The notes below the pieces were generated by a model that did not search any database, had not been told where the DNA came from, and was given only the letters and a program-made list of their open reading frames with translations. DNA of 59,118 nucleotides from Acidobacteriota bacterium (GTDB lineage: Bacteria; Acidobacteriota; Terriglobia; Bryobacterales; Bryobacteraceae), in NCBI GenBank assembly GCA_025353165.1, contig JANXRE010000154.1, positions 1 to 59,118 on the forward strand, given 5' to 3'. This document shows positions 4,567 to 17,056 of this stretch, piece after piece (positions within the stretch are counted from its first letter, which is position 1; every line of letters starts with the position of its first letter). A program made the position numbers and the translations under genes.

Positions 4567-5306
4567 ATGCGCAAACGCATCGCCTCTTGCGCCGACGGAA
4601 CTTGGCAGGACGCCGCCAACAACACGAACGTCCACAAGCTATACAATTCGCTCGTCCACGGCGCGGATCAGATCGCGTCCTATGACGAGGGAGTCGGCGC
4701 AACTCAGGATCCCATCTGGAAACTGCTCGGTGGCGCATTCGGAACAGGCTTCGGGCAGAAGATCAAGGACGGGTATACGAGCATCGCTCATGTGTACGAG
4801 GCGCGTACACCGCGCGCAGACTCGCGGGGATGATTGCCGCCTGCGGCCTTCCGACCCCGGACTTCAGCCAGGACGTCGTCGCCATTCCGTTCCGGGCCCA
4901 CGCGATAGGGACAACCGACAGGCGCTGATGGCGCAGTTGAAAGGCTGCAACATGGACGCGGCCAAAATCAAGATGGTCGGCGTGCGGAACACCGTCGGCG
5001 CGCGGGGAATACCTTGGTTGTTTGGGGAGGTGGACGCTGTTCTTTACGGTTTCCTCGAAAAAAGGAGCCCCGTGATCGGAAAAGCGGGCGAGTTTCCTCC
5101 AACCCGGTGGGCGACGTACGCTCCATTTATCCGGGATTATCCTGTGCGGCTTTCCGAAGCCCGGTGGATGGGCGAAGACGCCATACTCGCGAATAGCGTC
5201 GCCGTCCGCTTGGGGCCACGACGACTGTTATCGCCCGGAGAACCTGACGCTCGCAACCGGGGTTCCTTCCGTGGTGGGACCGGCCGTCATGGCAGCCGGC
5301 GCTTAG
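4567..5306 (+). pseudogene. broken DUF2235 (alpha/beta hydrolase-like) gene
   Basis: The first 75 codons match the start of DUF2235 proteins (RKRIASCADGTWQD, ASYDEGVGA, IKDGYTSIAHVYE). The segment that should carry the nucleophile motif (GFSRGAYTAR) is then cut: only GAYTARRLAGMIAACGL survives, in another frame, from about 4800. A third frame from about 4925 carries KIKMVGVRNTVGARGIPW and VDAVLYGFLE, which are the next conserved blocks. Remnants end near 5306. At least two frame changes plus loss of the catalytic serine region make this a true wreck. The family includes phospholipase effectors; no secretion genes are nearby. Confidence 0.7.
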
Positions 5307-6277
5307 GCCCCAACCGACGGAACCTCCGCCGCGCTGTACACGGTGTAGCCGTCGTTGTAGGACGGCGAGCCGTCGTCGTTGTTTCCCGCGATCATCCACA
5401 ACAGGCTGCCCGCGCCGCCGCTTGCGTCCACCTCGGCCAGCCACCGCGCAAACGTCGCATCGCGGGTGGCGGGATCGGCCTTGATGCCGTACTCCTCGAC
5501 GATCGCCGGCTTCGCCGCGCGCTGAGCCGCCTCGATGTGCTCGCGAATCCAGCGCACGCCGAAATCACCTGGGTCGGTGTCCGGTTCGAATTCCGGGTAC
5601 AGGTGGCACGTTCCGAAATCGATGTCCGGGATGCCCAGCAGCGCCTCGTGATCCAGTCCGTGCGATCCGTTGTACGGCGCGTGAGCGCCGGCGCCCGCGC
5701 GGCGGAAGAAACCCTCATCGCCCAGAGAGACGAGCTGTTGCGCGCCCGCCGCCTTGATCGCGGCGCTCATCTCTGCGGCCCACTTCAGAACGATGCCGGG
5801 GTCCGCGCCCTCGCATCTCGGCTCGTTGGCCAGCTCCCACGCGAGCACCGCGGGCTCGTCGCGGTACTGGCGTCCCGTAACTGTATTGACTCGCGACAAC
5901 AGGTTCGTCACGTACGAGCGGAAGGCGTCGCGAACCGCCGGCTCGGTGTAGAAAGGTTGCTGACCCGCGAAGCCGAAACGCTGCGACCAGGCTTCCATTC
6001 CCAGGATGTCCTTCCAGTAATTGACGAGCGGGAGAATCAGCCGCAGTCCCTGCTGCTCGGCCGCGGCGATGGTTTTGTCCAGCCTCGTCCAGTCGGGTTC
6101 TCCCGACGAGAAGGCGCAGGTGCGAAGGGTGTTCAGTTGCAGGTCCGCCGCCAGCTGAAAGACCTGGCCGGCCATCCCGTCGGACGCGAAACCGAGGTAG
6201 TAGCAATTGGCTCCCTTCACCCGGAAGGCCGCGCCGCCCGCCCGGAAAGCGCCGTCCTCAACGCGAACGTAGTCCAT
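5303..6277 (-). CDS. GH5-type glycoside hydrolase (mannanase-like)
   Basis: About 324 residues from ATG 6277; an in-frame ATG at 6361 would overlap the divergent FkbH gene and is less likely. The pattern is that of clan GH-A endo-beta-1,4-mannanases of GH5: FRVKGANCYYLGF near the N terminus, VLAWELANEP with the acid/base Glu near residue 152, HLYPEFEP, and IVEEYGIK with the nucleophile Glu near residue 262. No signal peptide is obvious from this start, so it may act in the cytoplasm or be exported another way. Exact subfamily and substrate are inferred. Confidence 0.75.
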   Translation of the reverse strand: MDYVRVEDGAFRAGGAAFRVKGANCYYLGFASDGMAGQVFQLAADLQLNTLRTCAFSSGEPDWTRLDKTIAAAEQQGLRLILPLVNYWKDILGMEAWSQRFGFAGQQPFYTEPAVRDAFRSYVTNLLSRVNTVTGRQYRDEPAVLAWELANEPRCEGADPGIVLKWAAEMSAAIKAAGAQQLVSLGDEGFFRRAGAGAHAPYNGSHGLDHEALLGIPDIDFGTCHLYPEFEPDTDPGDFGVRWIREHIEAAQRAAKPAIVEEYGIKADPATRDATFARWLAEVDASGGAGSLLWMIAGNNDDGSPSYNDGYTVYSAAEVPSVGA

Positions 6278-6296
6278 ATCTTCAATACAATAGGGG

Positions 6297-8366
6297 TTGA
6301 ACCCGGCAAACTCGAAATCCCCAGCGCCAGCCTTCCGCTTTTGCGTCGCCGCTTCGTTCACGGCGGAGCCGCTCGAGCCGGTGTTCCGCTTTTGGGGCGC
6401 TCAATTGAATGCGCCCGTGGAAATCCAGTTCGCGCCCTTCAACCAGTTGATTCAAACGCTTCTCGACCCTGCGAGTATATTCGCCGCGAACGCGCACGGC
6501 GTGAATGTGCTGTTGGCGCGCATCGAGGATCTGGGCCTCGATCCGGCCCGCGCCGCCGAGAACGCCGCGCACCTGGCCGACGCGATTCGCGGCGCGCACG
6601 AGCGGTTCGCGGTACCCCTGATTGTCTGCCTCTCTCCGCCGTCTCCCGCCGTCGTTTCCGCGCGCATGGAAACGGCGCTGGAGGGCGTCCCCGGCGTGCA
6701 ATACCTGGCGGCGGATCGCGTCGCCCAGTTGTATCCCGTCGAGCGCGTTTACGATCCCGACGCGGACCGGCTGGGAAAGATTCCTTATTCGGAGCAGTAT
6801 TTCGCCGCCCTCGGAACGGCCATCGTGCGCGTCGCGCACTCGCTGTCGGCGCCGCCCTACAAAGCGATCGCACTCGATTGCGACAACACGTTGTGGTCCG
6901 GCATCGCGGGTGAGGATGGGCCTACCGGCGTTACGCTCGATCCGTCCCGGCGCGCCCTGCACCAGTTCATGCTCGAGCAGCGCAATGACGGCATGCTGCT
7001 GTGCCTGGCCAGCAAGAACAACGAGGCGGACGTGCTCGAGACGTTCGACCTCAACCCGGACTTCCCGCTTCAAATGCGCCATTTCACCGCCTGGCGGTTG
7101 AACTGGGAATCGAAAGCCGAGAATCTGGAATCGCTGGCCGGCGAATTGTCGCTCGGACTGGACAGCTTCATCTTCGTGGACGACAACCCACTCGAGTGCG
7201 CCGAGGTGGAGGACGCTGCCCCGGAGGTGTTGACGCTGGCGCTCCCCGAAAACGCCGGCGAAATCCCGCATTTCCTCGATCACGTGTGGGCTTTCGATCA
7301 CCCGGTGGTCACGGAGGAGGATCGCAATCGCAATGCCTATTATTCGCAGACGCGGCAGTTCGGACGGGAAATGCGAGGCGCCGGGGATCTTCAGAAATTC
7401 ATCGGCGGCCTTGCGCTGGACGTTCGTTTTGCGCCGGTTTCGGCCGCGACTCTGCCGCGCGCCGCGCAGATGACGCAGCGAACCAACCAGTTCAACTTTG
7501 CGGCTGTTCGCCGTGCCGTGCCGGATCTGCAGGCGCTTCTCAGCGCCGGATACGAGTGCGTCACTGTGGACGTCTCCGACCGCTTCGGAGCGTACGGCAT
7601 CGTCGGCCTGCTGATTTGGCGCGAGGAGGCGGGCGCGCTGGACGTGGACACATTCCTGCTCAGTTGCCGGGCGCTGGGACGCGGAGTCGAGCATCGAATG
7701 CTGGCGTTCCTCGCGGGACGGGGTGCGGGGCGGGTTCGCATCCGCGGCGTTCCGACCGCGAAGAATCAGCCCGCGCTGCAATTCATCCACGACGTCGCCG
7801 CGCGTTATGGGCAGCCCAACGGGCGGTACGACTTGCCTGCCGAAGAGTTCCGCGATCTGGAATGGCGCGCGGTAGCGCGGCCGGCGGCAGCGCCGGTAGC
7901 CAAGCCGGTTCGCGCGGACGGACGCCGATTTGTCGAGTACGCGCACATCGCCCGCAATTTGAGCACGCCCGCCCGCATTGTCGCGGCCATGCGGCAGCCC
8001 GCCGCTCCGGGCGCTCACGCTATGCGGATGACCGCCGCCGAGCGGAGGCTCGCCGTCATCTGGTCGGATCTCCTGCGCAAACCCGATATACGCCCGGCCG
8101 ACAATTTCTACGATCTGGGAGGTCACTCGCTGCTGGCGGTCCTGTTGACGTTGCGCGTGCGCGAGGAGTTCGGCATCGAGCTTCCTATCGACGACGTTTA
8201 TTCGGCCGGACTCACGCTGTCCGAGCTTGCGCGAAAAGTGGAGACCTATCAGTTCGCGCGAGTCAGTCCCGAGGAGTATCAGGCTGTGCTGGACGAGATC
8301 GAGAACATGAGCGACGACGAGGTCCTGGCCGCGCTCGCCCGCGAGGGCGTGGAGGAACCGGCGTAG
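6297..8366 (+). CDS. FkbH-like HAD enzyme fused to a carrier (PCP/ACP) domain
   Basis: 689 residues from a TTG start that leaves a 19-bp gap to the divergent hydrolase. Residues 1-180 form the usual FkbH N-terminal part. The HAD-IIIC motif DCDNTLWSG has Asp194 and Asp196, and FVDDNPLECAEV is the later HAD motif. Residues about 350-520 are the GNAT-like FkbH tail. A carrier domain follows (about 555-640) with phosphopantetheine Ser611 in LGGHSLL. Characterised FkbH proteins load a glyceryl group from 1,3-bisphosphoglycerate onto a carrier protein. Here enzyme and carrier are in one chain, so a glyceryl-S-carrier product is inferred. The next gene starts 3 bp later. Confidence 0.85.
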   Translation: MNPANSKSPAPAFRFCVAASFTAEPLEPVFRFWGAQLNAPVEIQFAPFNQLIQTLLDPASIFAANAHGVNVLLARIEDLGLDPARAAENAAHLADAIRGAHERFAVPLIVCLSPPSPAVVSARMETALEGVPGVQYLAADRVAQLYPVERVYDPDADRLGKIPYSEQYFAALGTAIVRVAHSLSAPPYKAIALDCDNTLWSGIAGEDGPTGVTLDPSRRALHQFMLEQRNDGMLLCLASKNNEADVLETFDLNPDFPLQMRHFTAWRLNWESKAENLESLAGELSLGLDSFIFVDDNPLECAEVEDAAPEVLTLALPENAGEIPHFLDHVWAFDHPVVTEEDRNRNAYYSQTRQFGREMRGAGDLQKFIGGLALDVRFAPVSAATLPRAAQMTQRTNQFNFAAVRRAVPDLQALLSAGYECVTVDVSDRFGAYGIVGLLIWREEAGALDVDTFLLSCRALGRGVEHRMLAFLAGRGAGRVRIRGVPTAKNQPALQFIHDVAARYGQPNGRYDLPAEEFRDLEWRAVARPAAAPVAKPVRADGRRFVEYAHIARNLSTPARIVAAMRQPAAPGAHAMRMTAAERRLAVIWSDLLRKPDIRPADNFYDLGGHSLLAVLLTLRVREEFGIELPIDDVYSAGLTLSELARKVETYQFARVSPEEYQAVLDEIENMSDDEVLAALAREGVEEPA

Positions 8367-8369
8367 CGC

Positions 8370-11300
8370 ATGCGCATTCTGCTGACTTCCAACGCCTCCT
8401 ACGACCCCCCCCGCGGAGGCTCCACCAGAAGCAACCTCGCATGGTTGCGCCAGCTTGCGGCCGCCGGTCACGAATGCCACGTGATCTGCGCCTCGATGGG
8501 CGGCGACGCCGTGACGGAGCGGGATGGCATTCGCATCGAATCCTATCGCGACCTCGCTCGCCGCACGGAAGTCTTGCGTGCCGCGATCGCGCGCGTCATC
8601 CCCGATTGGGTGCTGGTCACCTCCGAGGATGTGGGGCACACGCTGCTTCGCGAAGCCGCGCACGGCGCTCCCGGACGCCTGGTGTTTCTCGCGCACACGC
8701 CGCAGTGGTTTCCGTTCGGCCCGGAATCCTGGCACCCGGATGCCGGTGCGGCCGCGTTGATCCGCGGCGCTCGCGGGATCGTCGCCATCGGCCGGCACAT
8801 GGCGGATTACATCGAACGCCACCTCGGCGTGCGGCCTTCGGTGGTGCACCCGCCCATCTACGGCGAGGCGCCCTACCCGCAGTTCGGGCGCTTCGACGAC
8901 GGCGTCGTGCTGATGATCAATCCGTGCGATGTGAAAGGGATTGGAATCTTCGCGGGACTCGCCGCGCGATTTCCCGAATTGCAGTTCGTCGCCCTCGTCG
9001 GCTGGGGAACGACGCATGCGGATCGCGATGTTCTCGCCCGGCTCCCCAATGTGCAACTGCTTGGCGCGGTGGCCAACATTGACGAGGCGCTTTCCCGCGC
9101 GCGCGTACTGCTAATGCCGTCGTTGTGGTACGAGGGATTCGGCCTGATCGCGATGGAGGCGATGTTGCGCGGCGTCCCGGTGATCGCCAGCGATTCGGGC
9201 GGCTTGGCCGAATCCAAGAGCGGCACCGGCTATGTCGTCCCGGTCCGCCCGATTACACGCTACCTTCCCGAATTCGACGAAAACGGCATGCCGAAGGCGG
9301 TGGTGCCCGAACAGGACATCGAGCCGTGGGCGGAAGCCCTCCGCACTCTCGCGACGGATGAGAACGCTTACCGGGCGGAGGCGGAGACGTCGCGCGAACG
9401 GGCCATTGGCTTCGTTTCGCGATTGCAGCCGGATGGTCTGGAGCGCGTGCTCGATTCGCTGCGCCCCGCTCCGCTGCGCATTCTGGTCGCTCACAACTCG
9501 CTGTACTTCCCTTCGCACGGCGGCGGCGATAAATCCAACCGGATCCTTATGGAGCTGCTCGCTTCGCATGGCCACGAAGTACGCGTGACGGCGCGTATCG
9601 AGCATTTCGGAGAGGAGTCCCACTACCGCCTGCTGCGCGATCTCGCCGGGCGCGGCGTCCCCGTCGATTCGGCTGACGACGGCGTAGTGAAGTTCCATTG
9701 CAAGGGCGTCGAGGTTCATACGCTGACCTCGAATCCCCGCATGCGCGCCTACTTCGAGGAGCAGGTTGCGACTTTCGATCCGCGGATTATCATTACTTCG
9801 ACAGACGATCCCGCGCAGTTCCTTTTTGAGATTGCCGCGCAGTCCGAACGGGCGCACGTGGTGTACCTGGTGCGCGCCACCATCGCCGTGCCGTTCGGAC
9901 CCGACGCGTCAAGCCCGAACGCGCCGCGAACGGCGACGCTGCGGCGCGCCGACGGCATCGTCACCGTCAGCGAATACGTCGCCCGCTATGTTCGGGAATA
10001 CGCCGGCCTCGATGCGGTGCACCTGCCGATCTCGCTGCCCGATCCCGGCCCGTTTCCGCTGCTCGGCCGGTTCGACAATCCGTATGTCACGATGGTGAAT
10101 CCCTGCGCGGTGAAGGGCATCGCGATTTTCCTGGCGCTCGCGGAACAGATGCCGGACGTCCAGTTCGCGGCGGTGCCGACGTGGGGCGCAACCTCCGACG
10201 ACCTCGCGGCGCTGGGTGGCTTGCCCAATGTCACGCTGGTGCCCGCGTCCGACGACATCGACGAGATTCTGAAGATCACGCGCGTGCTGCTGGTGCCCAG
10301 CGTGTGGGCCGAAGCGCGTTCCCGCGTGGTGCTGGAAGCGATGGAGCGCGGAGTGCCGGTGATGGCCGGCAATCTCGGCGGGCTGCCCGAAGCCAAGCTG
10401 GGCGTGCCGTATATCCTGCCGGTGAATCCGGTCAAACGCTACCTGCCCGCCGTCGATGAGAACATGGTGCCGGTGGCCGACGTGCCGCCGCAGGATGTAG
10501 CGCCGTGGAAGCAGGCGCTCGGCAGACTCGTCACCGACCGCGCCCATTGGGACGAGATCTCCGATATCTCCCGCCGCGCCGCGCTCGAATACGGCGACCG
10601 CGCGACGGTCTGGCCGTTCGAAGCCTTCCTTTCTTCGCTGGCGGGGAAGCCAAAGAAGCGCGTGGAAGCCGCGGCGGCGGAAACATCGGCGCTCGACCGC
10701 CTGTCGCCCGAGCAGCGGAAGCTGCTCGCGATCCGGTTGACGCGGCGCGCCGCGCGCCCGCGCTATATCTGGTTTCCGGGCATCGACGAGAGCGCGACCG
10801 GAAAACTGCGCCTCTTCTGTTTCCCGCACGCGGGCGGAGGAACAGCGGCGTACTCTTCGTGGCGAGGCGCCGTCGCCGATGTATTCGTGTGCCCGGTCCG
10901 GCTGCCCGGCCGCGAATCCCGGATGGAGGAAGCGCCGATCGATGAGATGCCGGCGCTGGTGGGTGCGCTGGCCGGCGCGATCGACCACTGGCTGAATGAG
11001 CCGTTCGCATTCTTCGGCCACAGCATGGGCGCGGGCGTGGCCTTCGAGCTGGCGCGCGAGCTGCGCCGGCGCGGGAAACCTCTTCCGCAAGCGTTGATTG
11101 TCTCCGGCGCGCGCGCGCCTCAACTGCGCAAAGGATGGACGCCGCCGCCGGAGCCGTCGGACTCGGAATTGTTGGAGCGGCTGCACGGCAATCCGGAAGC
11201 GCTGCGCCTGGCGCTCCCCGCTCTGCGCGCCGATATCCGGCTGTACAGCAATTACGCTTATTCGCAGGAAGCCCCGCTGCCCGTTCCCATCACGGCCTTT

Positions 11301-11465
11301 GCCGGTTTGTCCGATGCGAATGTTACGCCCGGGCAAGTGGCCGCGTGGAGCGCGCAGACCTCGGCGGCTTTCCGCTTCCACGCGTTTGAAGGCGGCCACT
11401 TCTTTCTGCAATCGGCCGCGGCTGAGTTTCTCCGCGAAGTGTCGGCCGCGCTCACGCCGGCGTGA
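8370..11465 (+). CDS. fusion: two GT4 glycosyltransferases plus type II thioesterase
   Basis: 1031 residues. The first GT4-like unit is about 1-365 (MRILLTSNASYDPPRGG; late motif SLWYEGFGLIAMEAM, then GVPVIASDSGGLAE). The second is about 368-745 (LRILVAHNSLYFPSHGG; SVWAEARSRVVLEAM, GVPVMAGNLGGLPEAK). Residues about 790-1031 are an alpha/beta-hydrolase thioesterase of the GrsT kind (LRLFCFPHAGGG; nucleophile Ser885 in FGHSMGAG; final His in EGGHFFL). Thioesterases of this type release or edit carrier-bound acyl groups, and the upstream gene ends in a carrier domain, so the two proteins likely work together. The second GT lacks the usual EGFG before its EAM motif (EARS), so it may be altered or inactive. 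Confidence 0.85.
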   Translation: MRILLTSNASYDPPRGGSTRSNLAWLRQLAAAGHECHVICASMGGDAVTERDGIRIESYRDLARRTEVLRAAIARVIPDWVLVTSEDVGHTLLREAAHGAPGRLVFLAHTPQWFPFGPESWHPDAGAAALIRGARGIVAIGRHMADYIERHLGVRPSVVHPPIYGEAPYPQFGRFDDGVVLMINPCDVKGIGIFAGLAARFPELQFVALVGWGTTHADRDVLARLPNVQLLGAVANIDEALSRARVLLMPSLWYEGFGLIAMEAMLRGVPVIASDSGGLAESKSGTGYVVPVRPITRYLPEFDENGMPKAVVPEQDIEPWAEALRTLATDENAYRAEAETSRERAIGFVSRLQPDGLERVLDSLRPAPLRILVAHNSLYFPSHGGGDKSNRILMELLASHGHEVRVTARIEHFGEESHYRLLRDLAGRGVPVDSADDGVVKFHCKGVEVHTLTSNPRMRAYFEEQVATFDPRIIITSTDDPAQFLFEIAAQSERAHVVYLVRATIAVPFGPDASSPNAPRTATLRRADGIVTVSEYVARYVREYAGLDAVHLPISLPDPGPFPLLGRFDNPYVTMVNPCAVKGIAIFLALAEQMPDVQFAAVPTWGATSDDLAALGGLPNVTLVPASDDIDEILKITRVLLVPSVWAEARSRVVLEAMERGVPVMAGNLGGLPEAKLGVPYILPVNPVKRYLPAVDENMVPVADVPPQDVAPWKQALGRLVTDRAHWDEISDISRRAALEYGDRATVWPFEAFLSSLAGKPKKRVEAAAAETSALDRLSPEQRKLLAIRLTRRAARPRYIWFPGIDESATGKLRLFCFPHAGGGTAAYSSWRGAVADVFVCPVRLPGRESRMEEAPIDEMPALVGALAGAIDHWLNEPFAFFGHSMGAGVAFELARELRRRGKPLPQALIVSGARAPQLRKGWTPPPEPSDSELLERLHGNPEALRLALPALRADIRLYSNYAYSQEAPLPVPITAFAGLSDANVTPGQVAAWSAQTSAAFRFHAFEGGHFFLQSAAAEFLREVSAALTPA

Positions 11466-12750
11466 CTGCGGAGTGGTAATCCTTCTCGCTTTCCGGCGCG
11501 GGCAGCGGCTCGGTCAGTTTCCCCCCGGCGTTGAACAGCGCCCAGTAGAGGGCCGTCGACCCGCTCAGCAGTCCGGCGATCACGCCGACCGGCCGGATAC
11601 CGATGGCGCCCGTCGCCACGCTCGACAGGGCCATTGAGATCATCATGACGGTGTTGAGCATCATGTCCACGGTCGAGAACACGCGCCCCCGGTATTGATC
11701 CGGGACGTGAGTTAACAGCATGGTCCGGTTGAGCACGTTGTTTGAACCCATGGCGATTCGCGAGACGCCGACGGCGATCGCCGAGGTCCATATGGTCGGC
11801 GCGAGAGCGAACGCGACATACGCCGCACCGTGGACGAAGTATCCGATCGAGATCGCGTGCTTGTAGCCATTGAACCTGAGCACGCGGCCGAGCCGGTGCG
11901 CGGTGATGCCGCCGGCCACGAGGCCGAGCCCGGCCGCGCCCCAAAGAATGCCGATGCCCGCCGGTCCCGCTTCGTACACGATCTCGCCGAACAGCGTGAA
12001 GAGAATCTGCGCCGCGCCGCCGCCGCTCGCCCAGCCGACGTAGGACATTCCGATGGCGAAAATCAGCGGCGTGCGCCACATGTAGCGCAGGCTGTCGGTA
12101 AAATCGCGCGCCCACTCGTCCGGGCCGTGGAGGCGCGGCGCGCCTTCCCGCGCCGGGCGGAAATGTCCCTCCGCCGATCGCAAATTCCACACCGCCCACG
12201 CGCTGCACAGAAACGACGCCGAGTTTGCGACGAACGCCCACTTGTATCCGAACTGATGCGTGCTGATTCCGCCTAGCATCGCGCCGATGGAAAGCGTGAG
12301 CCACGCCGTGGTCTGGGTGAGCGCGTTGGCGGTATGCAATTCCTCGGGATTCGTGATACGGGGCAGGATGGACGACCGCCCGCTGGTGAAGAAGGGAGAC
12401 GCGAAGGTCAGCAGCGCGCTCAAGGCATACAGCAGCCAGGTCTGCTGGTGAGTCAGCACCAGCACGAAGCCGAGCGCGATCAGGCAGCGGAGCAGATCGC
12501 TCGCCAGCATGATCTTTCTGCGGTCGAAGCGGTCGAGAGCGACGCCGGCGATCGGGCCCGCGAGCACGGCGGGCAGCGTCCGCGCGAGCATCACGCCTCC
12601 CACCACGAGGCTCGATCCCCCAGGAATGTGCAGGGCCAGGCTGACCACCGCGATGGTGTTGAAGTGGTCGCCTACCTCGCTCACCACCTGCCCCATCCAC
12701 AGATTGCGGTAATTCGCGTTGCGGCGCAGCAGCGCCTGGAAGGACGTCAC
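11452..12750 (-). CDS. MFS exporter, EntS/DUF894-like
   Basis: 432 residues with about 12 membrane segments. The start (FQALLRRNANYRNLWMGQVVSEVGD) and the loop LDRFDRRKIMLASD between helices 2 and 3 are typical of the enterobactin-exporter-like MFS group, which exports small molecules. Its 3' end overlaps the thioesterase fusion by 14 bp (convergent), and its start lies 28 bp from the divergent deacetylase gene. This placement suggests export of the product made by the two preceding proteins. Confidence 0.8.
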   Translation of the reverse strand: MTSFQALLRRNANYRNLWMGQVVSEVGDHFNTIAVVSLALHIPGGSSLVVGGVMLARTLPAVLAGPIAGVALDRFDRRKIMLASDLLRCLIALGFVLVLTHQQTWLLYALSALLTFASPFFTSGRSSILPRITNPEELHTANALTQTTAWLTLSIGAMLGGISTHQFGYKWAFVANSASFLCSAWAVWNLRSAEGHFRPAREGAPRLHGPDEWARDFTDSLRYMWRTPLIFAIGMSYVGWASGGGAAQILFTLFGEIVYEAGPAGIGILWGAAGLGLVAGGITAHRLGRVLRFNGYKHAISIGYFVHGAAYVAFALAPTIWTSAIAVGVSRIAMGSNNVLNRTMLLTHVPDQYRGRVFSTVDMMLNTVMMISMALSSVATGAIGIRPVGVIAGLLSGSTALYWALFNAGGKLTEPLPAPESEKDYHSAVTPA

Positions 12751-12778
12751 TACCTCCAGAGTAAGGGAAAATGGTCAA

Positions 12779-13714
12779 GTGGCTCCCGCGTTCCTCATCA
12801 CCATCGACACGGAAGGAGACGACCTGTGGTCGGGGCCTTCGACCATCACGGCGAAGAACGCCGAATACCTGCCGCGCTTCCAGCAATTGTGCGAGAAGTA
12901 CGGGCTGAAGCCGACGTGGCTGACGAATTATGAGATGGCGGCGGACGATCGCTTTGTGGAGCTCGGCCGGGACGCGGTGGCGCGCGGCGCGGCGGAGATC
13001 GGCATGCACCTGCACGCGTGGAACTCGCCTCCGGTTGTGCCGCTGACGGACGACGACTACCGGCATTGCCCTTACCTGATCGAGTACCCGCGCACCCTGA
13101 TCGAAGAGAAGGTCCGCTTCATGACCCGGCTGCTGGAAGACCGCTTCGAGCGGCCGGTCACGAGTCATCGCGCGGGCCGCTGGGCTTTCAACGAGGCATA
13201 CGCGAAAGTGCTGCTCGATCTCGGCTACATGGTCGATACGTCGGTGACGCCGCACGTCTCGTGGCGCGCGTACTATGGCGATCCGAAGGGAAACGGCGGC
13301 CCCGATTTCACCCATGCTCCCGAATTGCCCTACTTTCTGGACGGCGGGCTGCTGGAAGTGCCGATGACGATCATGACCGGCGGACCCGCGGCGGAGTCGA
13401 TTCGAAGCCTGCTGCCGCGCGGATCGGTGTTGGCGAAAGCGTGGAACCGCGTCAGCCCGCCCGTGCGATGGCTGCGGCCCAACGGGATGAACCTGAAGCT
13501 GATGTTGTCCATCCTGGATCGCGTACTGAGTGAAAACCGGCCCTGCGCCGTATTCATGCTGCACTCGTCGGAGATGATGCCCGGCGGCAGCCCGAACTTC
13601 CGCACGCCGGAATCCATCCAGGTGCTGTACGAGCACATGGAGGCCGTCTTTAAGGCCGCCGCCGCGGGCTTCCGGGGGCAAACCCTGACGGAGTTCGCGC
13701 TGGCATTCGCGTGA
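12779..13714 (+). CDS. polysaccharide-deacetylase-like (NodB superfamily) protein
   Basis: About 311 residues from GTG 12779, chosen because AAGGGA lies nine bases upstream and MAPAFLITIDTEGDD is a natural start. Motifs match the NodB fold: TIDTEGDD (metal-binding and catalytic Asp pair), EIGMHLHAW (His-x-His), TSHRAGRW and, near the C terminus, FMLHSSEMMPGG. The protein probably deacetylates or otherwise hydrolyses a glycan or glycolipid. No signal peptide, so it may be cytoplasmic. Its position at the edge of the FkbH/GT cluster suggests tailoring of the same product; this is inference. Confidence 0.75.
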   Translation: MAPAFLITIDTEGDDLWSGPSTITAKNAEYLPRFQQLCEKYGLKPTWLTNYEMAADDRFVELGRDAVARGAAEIGMHLHAWNSPPVVPLTDDDYRHCPYLIEYPRTLIEEKVRFMTRLLEDRFERPVTSHRAGRWAFNEAYAKVLLDLGYMVDTSVTPHVSWRAYYGDPKGNGGPDFTHAPELPYFLDGGLLEVPMTIMTGGPAAESIRSLLPRGSVLAKAWNRVSPPVRWLRPNGMNLKLMLSILDRVLSENRPCAVFMLHSSEMMPGGSPNFRTPESIQVLYEHMEAVFKAAAAGFRGQTLTEFALAFA

Positions 13715-14171: not shown

Positions 14172-14801
14172 ATGAGGCGCGTGGCGATTACCTATCACCG
14201 GGACGACAAGGTCGCATCGTACGCCGCCGCCGTGCGCGCGGCCGGCATGGAGCCGGTGCTGGTGAAGGCTGGCGATCCGGCGTCGCTCGACGGGATGGAC
14301 GGATTGCTGCTGTCCGGCGGAGCGGATGTCGATCCGGCCCTGTTTGGAGAACAGCGTCATGAAAAGACTGAGACGCCGGTTCCCGAGCGCGACGGGCTGG
14401 AATGGGCGCTGCTCACGCAGGCGCTGGCGGCCGATTTTCCCGTGCTCGCGATCTGCCGCGGCTTGCAGTTGATGAACGTGCTGCAGGGAGGCACGCTCGT
14501 GCAGCATGTGGAGGGGCACAAGATCGCCGATGTCCACGATATCGTTCTGGAGCCGGGGTCGCGTCTGCACGCGATCTTCGGCGCCAGCGAACTGTGCGTA
14601 AATTCGCGGCACCATCAGATCGTGGGACGGCTCGGCTCCGGCTTGTCGGTAAGCGCGCGGTCCAAGCACGATGGGGTGGTCGAGGGACTGGAGCGCCCGG
14701 ACCGCCGGTTCGCCGTCGCGGTGCAGTGGCATCCCGAGGACCAGTATGCCCGGTACAAAGAACAGTTGAAATTGTTCGACGCGTTCCGGGATGCGCTCTG
14801 A
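14172..14801 (+). CDS. gamma-glutamyl-gamma-aminobutyrate hydrolase family (peptidase C26)
   Basis: 209 residues, class I glutamine-amidotransferase fold. The catalytic triad is visible: Cys95 in AICRGLQ, His187 and Glu189 in VQWHPED. The [16 protein letters not shown] block is typical of PuuD-like hydrolases. It would cleave gamma-glutamyl amides in the cytoplasm. It is shorter than PuuD (about 250) but otherwise intact. No puu genes are near, so the substrate is open. Confidence 0.8.
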
Positions 14802-14862
14802 TGCGGTTGTGTCGCGCGACGGACGAAGGCAGAATGAGGAATCGCTTTTTTCAAGGAGGTGT

Positions 14863-15475
14863 ATGCCCCTGAGCAGACGCGCGGCCGCCGAACTGCCAGG
14901 CAATTTCTGGCTGGTGTTCGGCGGTTGCGGAAGCGCAGTACTCGCCGCAGCTTTTCCCGGTCTGGGGATCGGGTTTCTAGGCGTGGCCCTTGCGTTCGGA
15001 CTCACGGTCTTGACCATGGCTTTTGCCATCGGGCACATTTCGGGCTGTCATTTGAACCGCGCGGTTTCCGTCGGGCTGGTGGTAGCCAAGCGATTCCCGG
15101 CATCGGAATTATCGCCTGATTTAGCTGCCAGGTTATCGGCGGCATTGTGGGCGCGGGCGTGCTCTTCGTGATCGCCAGCGGGAAGGCGGGGTTCAGTCTC
15201 GCCGGCGGGTTTGCTTCGAACGGGTATGGGGATCACTCGCCCGGCGGCTATCCGAAAGTGGCGTGCCTGGTGGCCGAGGGGGTGCTCACTTGATTCGCCT
15301 GATCGGCATCCCGGCCAACAATCTGTCTGTAAACCCGGCGCGCAGCACCGGCCGGGCGGTGTTCGCCGGAGGCTGGGCCATCGAGCAATTGTGGCTGTCC
15401 TGGGTGGCGCCGATTGTGGGGGCCGCTTTGGCGGGGATCGTGTACCCGGCGATCGCCGGGCGGGCAAAGGATTAA
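14863..15475 (+). pseudogene. aqpZ: decayed aquaporin Z (MIP family)
   Basis: Begins well, with a strong AAGGAGGTGT ribosome site just before ATG 14863 and [32 protein letters not shown]. The first NPA motif is already changed (HLNRAVS). The frame then breaks near 15115; the next stretch ([30 protein letters not shown]) is in another frame and stops at TGA near 15292. About 20-30 residues are missing before [11 protein letters not shown], and the second NPA region (SVNPARSTG) through the C terminus is in the same frame as the middle piece but after the stop. Two lesions plus a lost pore motif argue for real inactivation. Confidence 0.8.
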
Positions 15476-16238
15476 TATCCGCATACTCCGCTCTATCTGG
15501 ATCTGGACCGCCGGTGCCGTCCTCCTGCTGTCGTGGGTGCCGATCCAGGGCGTCGTCCGGTTGTTGGACCGCGACCCGATGCGCCTTCGGACAGGCCGGT
15601 GGTTCCGGCGGCTGGGAAGGAATCTGGCGCGCCTCAACCCCTGGCGGCTGCACATCGAGGGGCGGGAGCGCATCGCGCCGGGGCAGGTCTACGTGGTGGT
15701 CAGCAACCACCAGTCCCTGGCCGATATCCCGGTGATCTGCTTCCTGTGGCTGGATGCGAAATGGCTGGCCAAAATAGAGCTGTTCCGGCTTCCGGTGCTG
15801 GGGGTGCTGCTGCGCATGGCGGGCGATATCCCCGTCGACCGGTCCGCCCGCCGGGAAGCGGGGAAGGCCTTTCATCAGGCGACGATGTGCGTCCGCCAGG
15901 GGTGTTCCGTAGTGTTCTTCGCGGAGGGCACGCGATCGCCGGACGGCGAGATCGGGCCCTTCAACGACGGGCCGTTCCAACTCGCCCTGCGCGAGCGGGT
16001 CCCGCTGCTGCCGCTGGTTTTGGATGGCTCCGGCGATGCCCTGCCGCGGAACTCCTGGTTATTCGGGGGAGCCCGCGACATCCGGCTGCGGGTTCTCGCG
16101 CCGGTGGAAACCGAGGGCTGGGACGTGGAACAGGGGGCGGAGCTACGGGATGCAGTTCGTCAAACAATGATCGACGAACTGCATCGCATGCGGACCGCGG
16201 CAGGGACTGCTCCCTTACGGCCGCGGCTCGGTATCTAG
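15414..16238 (+). CDS. 1-acyl-sn-glycerol-3-phosphate acyltransferase (PlsC family)
   Basis: Membrane-bound acyltransferase that would add the second acyl chain in phospholipid synthesis. The HX4D motif is present as NHQSLAD, followed by GDIPVDRS and [11 protein letters not shown], the expected order of PlsC blocks. One N-terminal membrane helix ([15 protein letters not shown]). The open frame begins with TTG 15414 inside the aquaporin remnant; the natural start is probably near 15471-15486, where no standard start codon lies in frame (ATT and ATA are present), so the 5' end is uncertain. The last 4 bp overlap the convergent ThuA gene. Confidence 0.8.
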
Positions 16239-17056
16239 TTGGCGGGCTTCGGGTGGGGCGTGGTGTCGGTTTCGGTCAGGCGCAGCGCCCACTTGGTGGC
16301 CTCGAGATACATCTTTTGCACGTCCGTGCGCTCGTAGGCTTCCAGCGTGTGCCCGAGGGTGGTGTAAAACACCCGGCCTTTTCCGTAGTTCTTCACCCAG
16401 GCCACCGCGAAATCCTGGTCGGTTCGCTTCACGTTCTTGTTCTGGAGGTTCAGCTTCGTTTCATCCAGCCGCATCAGGACGTGGACCTTGTCGCGGGAGA
16501 AGATGGCGCTGGGCTGGTAAATCTCGTCGTGAATGAGAAATGCCGGCTGGAAGTAGGCGGTGATCGGAGAGGCGCGATCCTCCACGATGACGGGGGCGTC
16601 GAAGGTGCCCCAGGGGTGATTGTCGAAGTAGGCCCCCATCATTTCTCCGTACTCCGGCCATTTATAGAGCGTGTCGATGGCGGTGTGGCCGCCGACGATG
16701 CCTTTGCCGTCCTCCTTCACGAAGGAGAGCAGATCGGCCTTTTGCGAATCGTCCAACGGAAGTTCGCCGGTGGTGAACAGGTAAATGGCGTCGAAGTTGT
16801 CCAAATTTTTGCGGTTGTTTCCGGCGGGTTTCTTCTTCGTGATGAGTTCCGTGTCGGTGCGGATGGTGGTGTCCCACAGGCCGGTGTCGCGGCCGAGTTG
16901 CCACATCATGGCGAGACCGCGGGTTACCGAGTCGTGCTGGTACCCCATGGTCTGGCCGATGGCGAGCACCTTCTTCTTTTGGGGAGCGTTCTGCTGGGCC
17001 GGGGCGAGGCCGCCGGCGCAGAGCAGAAGGGCAAGTGAAAGTTGTAAATAGCGCAT
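16235..17056 (-). CDS. ThuA-domain protein, exported
   Basis: 273 residues with a signal peptide (MRYLQLSLALLLCAGGLAPAQ). The rest is a ThuA-like glutamine-amidotransferase-fold domain: VLAIGQTMGYQHDSV, YLFTTGELPLDDSQ, GIVGGHTAIDTLYKW, GRVFYTTLGHT. These domains are frequent in Acidobacteria, Verrucomicrobia and Planctomycetes, linked to sugar use, but their activity is not settled. The start lies 68 bp from the divergent fliW start. Confidence 0.8.
   Translation of the reverse strand: MRYLQLSLALLLCAGGLAPAQQNAPQKKKVLAIGQTMGYQHDSVTRGLAMMWQLGRDTGLWDTTIRTDTELITKKKPAGNNRKNLDNFDAIYLFTTGELPLDDSQKADLLSFVKEDGKGIVGGHTAIDTLYKWPEYGEMMGAYFDNHPWGTFDAPVIVEDRASPITAYFQPAFLIHDEIYQPSAIFSRDKVHVLMRLDETKLNLQNKNVKRTDQDFAVAWVKNYGKGRVFYTTLGHTLEAYERTDVQKMYLEATKWALRLTETDTTPHPKPAN

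What the first reader, a model, noticed from the sequence alone, without database searches (positions are those of the whole stretch)
6297..13714. Compact FkbH-carrier / GT-GT-thioesterase / exporter / deacetylase cluster
Seen: an FkbH-like HAD enzyme fused to its own carrier domain (Ser611), followed 3 bp later by a chain with two GT4 domains and a type II thioesterase, then an MFS exporter of the EntS group and a NodB-type deacetylase. Known: FkbH enzymes load glyceryl units on carriers in polyketide pathways. There is no ketosynthase, adenylation or condensation domain nearby. Inference: a minimal pathway that makes a glyceryl- (or other C3-acyl-) decorated glycoside, with the thioesterase transferring or releasing the carrier-bound unit onto a disaccharide and the MFS protein exporting it. 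I do not know of a described system of this composition.
Basis: partly seen in the sequence, partly recalled or inferred. Interest (0 to 1): 0.75.

Follow-up and report, generated by a model that had tools for sequence, protein, structure and literature searches.

The report
Glyceryl carrier with tandem glycosyltransferases
Many bacteria of one Acidobacteria family keep two neighbouring genes that look like a cut-down antibiotic-type assembly line which holds a three-carbon acid on a carrier protein, probably adds two sugars and lets the product go; the metabolite is unknown and the prediction is easy to test.

Summary
The gene pair is real and conserved; the four-gene cluster is not. The window holds an FkbH-carrier protein (6297-8366) and, 3 bp on, a GT4-GT4-type II thioesterase chain (8370-11465). 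75 of 150 sampled family genomes have a close FkbH-carrier (78 places, hand-selected), and 67 of the 75 have a GT(-TE) gene downstream on the same strand. Catalytic residues are nearly invariant. The MFS gene, on the minus strand, adjoins the pair in at least 16 of 75. The deacetylase is not part: it occurs in 5 other of 101 family genomes, none with a close FkbH-carrier. Key addition: in three relatives the same gene reads FAAL-ACP-condensation-FkbH-ACP, with a fourth cut by its contig end. That is the order of the first two modules of the vioprolide and corramycin lines; in vioprolide a fatty acid is esterified to carrier-bound glycerate (passages). The window version is best read as a stripped glyceryl module whose carrier-bound glycerate is glycosylated by the two GTs and released by the TE. 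Substrate, donors and product are inferred. New variant of a known kind.

The parts
6297..8366 (+). FkbH-carrier protein, 689 aa, TTG start: N-terminal FkbH region, HAD-IIIC/FkbH domain (about 6858-7802), peptidyl-carrier-type domain (about 8046-8234), Ser611 codon 8127-8129
   Evidence: TIGR01686 and PP-binding over cut-off; D194, D196, T198, C457, S611 in 44 of 44 family rows (43 distinct, one locus twice)
8370..11465 (+). GT4-GT4-type II thioesterase, 1031 aa: GT1 8370-9467, GT2 9468-10589, TE about 10809-11447
   Evidence: E255/E263 of GT1, E648/E656 of GT2, TE Ser885/Asp982/His1010; the chain's fold matches MshA/PimA/BshA and RedJ/BorB/RifR
11452..12750 (-). MFS transporter, convergent with the pair; optional neighbour
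   Evidence: MFS_1 108 bits; a homolog adjoins the pair in at least 16 of 75 genomes
12779..13714 (+). putative polysaccharide-deacetylase-like protein; not part of the unit
   Evidence: no family match; homologs in 5 other of 101 family genomes, none with a close FkbH-carrier
5303..6361 (-). GH5 cellulase-like protein, divergent neighbour; not part of the unit
   Evidence: PF00150, 50.8 bits; no homolog over 50 bits in the 50 stretches

Best explanation
The pair is a minimal, carrier-protein-based pathway for a glycosylated glyceric acid. Step 1: a phosphopantetheinyl transferase arms Ser611. Step 2: the FkbH domain takes a phosphorylated glyceryl unit (1,3-bisphosphoglycerate or 3-phosphoglycerate), removes the phosphate and leaves glyceryl as a thioester on the adjoining carrier. 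Step 3: the two GT4 domains add two sugars to the hydroxyl groups of the carrier-bound unit. Step 4: the fused type II thioesterase releases the glycoside; in some lineages an MFS protein may export it. In relatives with the long form, FAAL-ACP-C first puts a fatty acyl ester on the glyceryl unit, as in vioprolide, so their product would be an acyl-glycerate glycolipid. Shown by sequence: the domains, their conservation, the coupling of the two genes, and candidate PPTases in the genome. Inferred: substrate, sugar donors, order of steps, product.
For: Gene coupling: 75 of 150 family genomes have a close FkbH-carrier (78 places, hand-selected from the capped list); in 67 genomes (68 places) a GT or GT-TE match follows on the same strand within 6 kb. 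No GT-GT-TE relative listed in the 48 non-family genomes (TE or weak GT matches only, at most 124 bits). Residue conservation. Purifying selection in three short-form pairs: dN/dS 0.075-0.251 for FkbH, GT1 and GT2-TE (a fourth pair was saturated or lacked a part and gave one usable value, 0.111). Long form FAAL-ACP-C-FkbH-ACP in L074, L077 and L082, and C-FkbH-ACP cut by the contig end in L070; FAAL identity by the closest solved structures for L082; HHxxxD motif of the C domain in 4 of 4. These four are also followed by GT and GT-TE genes, L070's being cut inside the TE by the contig end. FAAL-ACP-C-HAD-T starts the vioprolide and corramycin lines, and the vioprolide FkbH domain is said to have been shown to activate D-3-phosphoglycerate (PMC10099666, passages; PMC8949500, passages). 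A GT of this subfamily (46% to GT2) is fused to an NRPS C-A-T-TE module in G168, and a 38-39% relative sits beside FkbH-ACP, ACP and TE genes, with a condensation gene in the same locus, on a Streptomyces plasmid. PPTases: 2 PF01648 matches in the genome, frames of 128 and 249 aa.
Against: No biochemical evidence. Type II TEs often only proofread (recalled). The window's genome has no FAAL by search (best partial match 55 bits) and its only condensation match is on another contig, so the acylated product cannot be assumed here. GT or GT-TE genes occur without a close FkbH in G030, G065, G068, G072 and G168 (G030 and G072 are pieces, G168 is the NRPS fusion), and FkbH lies apart from the GTs in G015, G029 and G138. 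No third gene family is tied to the pair, so there is no neighbour that would tell the sugar donors.
Confidence: 0.5

Rival explanations
1. One reading: the GTs build a disaccharide or glycolipid by themselves and the TE domain acts as an acyltransferase that moves the glyceryl (or acyl-glyceryl) group from the carrier onto a sugar hydroxyl.
For: Same gene coupling; TE triad intact in nearly all rows (Ser 42 and His 42 of 42 rows with letters; Asp 36 and Glu 4 of 42); the GT domains look like general GT4 enzymes.
Against: Closest TEs by sequence and fold are type II enzymes such as RedJ, BorB and RifR. A GT of this subfamily fused into an NRPS module with C, A, T and TE fits action on carrier-bound or NRPS-made acceptors better.
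Confidence: 0.25
2. Surface-polysaccharide decoration: the pair makes a glyceryl or glycerate-glycoside substituent of a cell-surface glycan.
For: An FkbH-carrier relative (47% over the FkbH region) lies in an exosortase/exopolysaccharide locus of Aquisphaera.
Against: Apart from the MFS, no third gene family recurs in more than 10 of the 44 neighbourhoods (those families were not named by search), so no polymerase or flippase is tied to the pair.
Confidence: 0.13
3. Trans-acting module: the FkbH-carrier feeds glyceryl to an NRPS elsewhere in the genome (contig C84 or C62 here).
For: The genome has adenylation-carrier and adenylation-carrier-thioesterase genes on C84 and C62 (translations; domains read by eye) with one condensation domain on C84.
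Against: Several genomes with the pair have only weak matches to a FAAL-ACP-C query (for example G007, G044 and G037, best E 6.9e-7, 1.0e-8 and 2.3e-9); tight linkage to GT-GT-TE would be unexplained.
Confidence: 0.06
4. The FkbH domain loads another acid, or its glyceryl unit is turned into another unit such as methoxymalonyl, and no glycerate is in the final product.
For: FkbH enzymes also serve methoxymalonyl-ACP routes (recalled).
Against: Such routes need dehydrogenase and methyltransferase partners (recalled); no third family is tied to the pair (families there not named by search).
Confidence: 0.06

Closest known systems
Vioprolide and corramycin starter modules (FAAL-ACP-C-FkbH-T)
   Same: FkbH domain directly followed by a carrier; in three relatives of the window the whole FAAL-ACP-C-FkbH-T order is identical (PMC10099666 and PMC8949500, passages)
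   Different: The window lacks FAAL-ACP-C; no NRPS modules follow; two GT4 domains and a type II TE follow instead
Cystomanamide synthetase (C-FkbH-PCP module, glycosylated lipopeptides)
   Same: Glyceryl module in a line whose product is glycosylated (PMC9581180, table passage; PMC8949500, passage)
   Different: A five-module NRPS; where the sugar sits was not in what I read
Suomilide/dysinosin FkbH loading modules
   Same: FkbH proposed to load glycerate at the start of a line (PMC8609519, passages)
   Different: Glycerate is proposed to be methylated and sulfonated, and NRPS modules extend it
Streptomyces sp. NBC_00441 plasmid cluster
   Same: FkbH-ACP, a GT4 of the same subfamily, TE, ACP, condensation protein, MFS
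   Different: Separate genes on both strands, a second GT of the EryCIII-like type, nucleotide-sugar genes, GH38; product unknown to me
Glucosylglycerate / methylglucose lipopolysaccharide pathways
   Same: Glycosylated glyceric acid as product
   Different: Made on free phosphoglycerate without a carrier protein (recalled); only the listing and start of abstract of PMC4555173 were seen

Membership tests
FkbH (glyceryl transferase/phosphatase, HAD-IIIC) | FkbH domain model over its curated cut-off | tested here: met
   TIGR01686 253.2 bits against 146.65
FkbH (glyceryl transferase/phosphatase, HAD-IIIC) | HAD DxDxT motif and conserved Cys in the LSCR block | tested here: met
   D194, D196, T198, C457 in 44 of 44 rows; that this Cys is catalytic is recalled
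FkbH (glyceryl transferase/phosphatase, HAD-IIIC) | Loads glyceryl from a phosphoglycerate on a carrier | not testable with these tools
   needs enzyme assay
Thiolation/carrier domain | Phosphopantetheine Ser in a canonical motif and a PPTase in the genome | tested here: met
   S611 44 of 44; PP-binding over cut-off; two PF01648 matches. Actual modification not testable here
Vioprolide-type acyl-glycerate starter (FAAL-ACP-C-FkbH-T) | FAAL, ACP and C domain upstream of FkbH-T | tested here: not met
   absent from the window and no FAAL found in its genome; met in relatives L074, L077, L082
Type II thioesterase | TE fold with GHSxG Ser, Asp, His and closest relatives RifR/RedJ/BorB | tested here: met
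   unusual in being fused to GTs
GT4 glycosyltransferase | GT4 domain models and E-x7-E motif in both units; GT-B fold matches for the chain | tested here: met
NodB polysaccharide deacetylase | NodB domain model | tested here: not met
   no match in Pfam at E 10 or NCBIfam at E 1e-3; motif resemblance by eye only
EntS siderophore exporter | EntS equivalog model over cut-off | tested here: not met
   83.3 bits against 324

The most novel reading that the evidence does not exclude
Thioester-templated saccharide assembly: Bryobacteraceae build a glycoside on a carrier-bound glyceryl primer with no adenylation, condensation or ketosynthase domain, using an NRPS-type starter reduced to the glyceryl loader and its carrier, and both GT4 enzymes act on the tethered unit. 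The product would be a previously undescribed metabolite (or, in long-form lineages, an acyl-glycerate glycolipid) common to a large part of the family.
Probability: 0.35. Interest if true: 0.75.

Novelty: new variant of a known kind. Interest (0 to 1): 0.6.

Why it matters
Glyceryl-carrier chemistry is known from polyketide and peptide lines, where it supplies one building block. Here it seems to be the whole scaffold and is tied to sugar transfer and release in two genes, conserved in about half of the sampled genomes of a family. If true, it shows how an assembly line can shrink to a sugar-conjugating machine. It also gives a two-protein test system for glycosylation on a carrier, and points to an unknown metabolite shared by many members of a family that is hard to grow (recalled). 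The long and short forms in relatives make the evolutionary step testable.

Tried and rejected
Four-gene cluster (FkbH, GT-GT-TE, MFS, deacetylase): rejected. Deacetylase homologs occur in 5 other of 101 family genomes (G021, G024, G129, G135, G136). In one search none of these has a close FkbH-carrier (G135 has only a 36% FkbH match). GH5, peptidase C26 and the LPAAT-like gene of the window: no homolog over 50 bits in the 50 stretches. ThuA homologs there are scattered, at 25-30% identity.

How 'close FkbH-carrier' was chosen: by hand from the capped list, matches of 43% identity or more over most of the protein plus fragments of at least 46%. Left out: distant ones (G171, G032 and G172 at 37-41%) and four further pieces of G040 at 41-45% (C13, C226, C267, C1). 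The GT list was likewise hand-copied from the capped lists.

Exporter as a fixed part: weakened. They adjoin the pair (or, in G040, the GT-TE gene) in at least 16 of 75: 11 convergent including the window and 4 divergent by hand comparison, plus G038, seen only because its contig cuts the gene. Of the 14 best MFS matches, 11 adjoin the pair and 3 (G003, G023, G016) do not. The 15 of 44 loci with an MFS-cluster ORF include three (L057, L059, L067) where it lies several kb away.

Direction of evolution: the tree puts the four long-form rows (99/95) beside the other 40 rows of the family (97/91), with six outgroups outside. One loss or one gain fits equally; three outgroup branches are very long. 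Two near-copies (L029, L032) were dropped before that tree.

Non-adjacent FkbH places: 10 of 78. Seven appear cut by a contig end (G022, G167, G176, G035, G040, G043:C171, G143:C284, judged from coordinates; G022 has a GT1 piece beside it); G015, G029 and G138 look really separate.

Deacetylase structure by single-sequence prediction: useless. Literature: FkbH + glyceryl + glycosyltransferase + thioesterase 0 papers; FkbH + Acidobacteria 0; the 35 papers with FkbH were seen as titles and abstract starts, and four of them as passages; the listings showed no description of such a system. These cover open-licence PMC papers only.

Of those 50, 48 show the pair; L084 (a distant FkbH in G171) and L028 (contig starts inside the GT) do not.

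Full report
What is there. The window is contig C98 of a 5.77-Mb genome whose nearest named relatives are Bryobacteraceae, Acidobacteriota (record titles). 6297-8366 (+) encodes 689 aa: an FkbH domain (TIGR01686, 253 bits) and a carrier domain (PP-binding, 52.6 bits). The only usual start codon ahead of the conserved block is the TTG at 6297, because the in-frame codon 6291-6293 is a stop (read by eye). Three bases after its stop comes 8370-11465 (+), 1031 aa: two GT4 units and a thioesterase domain. The MFS gene at 11452-12750 is on the minus strand and overlaps the end of the TE gene by 14 bp. The putative deacetylase starts divergently from it. A GH5-like gene diverges upstream of the FkbH gene.

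The two GT units are 36% identical to each other, which suggests a duplication. Both keep the E-x7-E motif: E255 in 40 of 40 and E263 in 39 of 40 GT1 rows, both Glu in 44 of 44 GT2 rows. The TE keeps Ser in 42 and His in 42 of 42 rows with letters, and Asp in 36 plus Glu in 4 of 42. A model of the chain (mean pLDDT 76, 5 sequences) matches type II thioesterases RedJ, BorB and RifR and the GT4 enzymes MshA, PimA and BshA. BshA and MshA act on small polar acceptors such as malate or inositol phosphate (recalled); this is suggestive only. Between GT2 and TE, 25 of 42 chains over 600 aa of this cluster match a strict pattern LS..(R/K).LL..R(L/A), which reminds me of NRPS inter-domain linkers (recalled).

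Is it a unit? Yes, the pair is. In 150 family genomes a close FkbH-carrier was found at 78 places in 75 genomes (hand selection described under Tried and rejected); 68 places in 67 genomes have a GT or GT-TE match downstream on the same strand within 6 kb. In 44 neighbourhoods (43 distinct, all chosen for an FkbH or GT match) compared all against all, the FkbH-carrier and the GT(-TE) clusters were each in 44 of 44; the next most frequent cluster was the MFS, in 15 of 44 (in three of these several kb away), and none of the rest exceeded 10 (those others were not named by family search). GT1 is fused to GT2-TE in some (as in the window) and a separate gene in others. In the 48 genomes of other families no GT-GT-TE was listed. 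In one search (297 genomes of the phylum, E up to 1e-40) the best non-family FkbH matches were 38-45% identical, and one (G436) continues directly into a TE domain (FkbH-ACP-TE). So in these samples the pair is a trait of about half the family. Pairs of related genomes show dN/dS from 0.075 to 0.251 in the three coding parts of the short form.

What is not part of it. The deacetylase occurs in 5 other of 101 family genomes and none of those has a close FkbH-carrier; the same-genus genome G001 has no match. The MFS belongs to a family present in 127 of 150 genomes, and adjoins the pair in at least 16 of 75. It may be a recruited exporter in some lineages; the 11 convergent copies are all among the 14 best matches to the window's MFS, which suggests co-inheritance there.

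The clue to mechanism. In L074, L077 and L082 (three genera) the FkbH gene is 1827-1879 aa and reads FAAL, ACP, condensation, FkbH, ACP; L070 shows C-FkbH-ACP from the contig end. Pfam names AMP-binding, two carrier and condensation domains; the FkbH part is by alignment with the window protein, and the FAAL call rests on the closest solved structures of the L082 domain, among them FadD32, FadD23 and FadD28. All four C domains keep HHxxxD, and all four genes are followed by GT and GT-TE, the last one cut in L070. FAAL-ACP-C-HAD-T is the order of the first two modules of the vioprolide and corramycin lines; in vioprolide a special C domain esterifies glycerate with the fatty acid, and its FkbH domain is reported to activate D-3-phosphoglycerate (PMC10099666 and PMC8949500, passages). 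Hence the FkbH-carrier of the window is best read as the glyceryl module of such a starter without its acylating half. The window's genome shows no FAAL (best partial match 55 bits), a single condensation match on another contig, and two PPTase-family genes, one short and one of Sfp-like length.

Why glycosylation on the carrier is my preferred order. A GT of the same subfamily (46% to GT2) is the N-terminal domain of a C-A-T-TE NRPS chain in G168, in a contig that also has a FAAL line. In Streptomyces sp. NBC_00441 an FkbH-ACP protein (46% over the FkbH region), a GT4 (38-39%), a TE, a free ACP, a condensation protein, an MFS and nucleotide-sugar genes share one locus on a plasmid. Both link this GT type to carrier-based lines. 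On the other hand a GT4 relative (33-37%) on a Niveispirillum plasmid has no FkbH, carrier or TE match in its 29-kb stretch, and five family genomes have stand-alone GT2-like genes without TE. The opposite direction, a glyceryl group moved onto a sugar, is not excluded.

Results against. G065 and G068 have GT-TE genes with no close FkbH; G030 and G072 show only pieces; G168 has the NRPS-fused GT. G015, G029 and G138 have FkbH apart from the GTs. No neighbour tied to the pair tells the sugar donors. The tree does not tell loss from gain of FAAL-ACP-C. No product is known.

Known or new. I found no description of such a pair in the searched open-licence papers (FkbH is named in only 35 of them). 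Each domain is known, and the long form starts like vioprolide. The combination of a bare glyceryl-carrier with a tandem GT4-TE chain as a conserved two-gene unit is a new variant of a known kind. Interest 0.6: a specialist would want the product, and the test needs two proteins.

Noticed in passing
L107:301-5778 (G168 contig C67): One chain with GT4, condensation, adenylation, carrier and thioesterase domains: a glycosyltransferase fused to an NRPS module, in a contig with a FAAL line.
   Followed up: partly
L104:7956-10931 (G436 contig C161) and L106: FkbH-carrier-thioesterase in one chain (L104), followed by an adenylation-carrier-thioesterase gene: another minimal glyceryl line in Acidobacteriota. 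L106 has FkbH and then carrier-TE in overlapping frames.
   Followed up: no
L100:1554-21702 (Streptomyces sp. NBC_00441 plasmid): Unassigned saccharide cluster with FkbH-ACP, ACP, GT4, EryCIII-like GT, TE, condensation protein, FGE-like protein, GH38, MFS and nucleotide-sugar genes.
   Followed up: partly
L002:40-2697 (contig C36 of the window's genome): A second, distant FkbH-like gene (28% over residues 134-497, 569 aa) starts after a 3-bp gap behind a gene that looks to me like a polysaccharide deacetylase (label by eye).
   Followed up: no
L003 (C62) and L004 (C84) of the window's genome: Small NRPS genes that read by eye as adenylation-carrier-thioesterase and adenylation-carrier; the only condensation match of the genome is on C84.
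   Followed up: no
L109, L110, L111, L112, L113: Stand-alone GT2-like genes without thioesterase (48-60% identical to GT2) elsewhere in family genomes; their acceptors could hint at the sugar chemistry.
   Followed up: no
window 14172-17056: Peptidase C26/GATase, LPAAT-like acyltransferase and ThuA genes follow the finding; only scattered ThuA homologs show up near the pair in relatives.
   Followed up: partly
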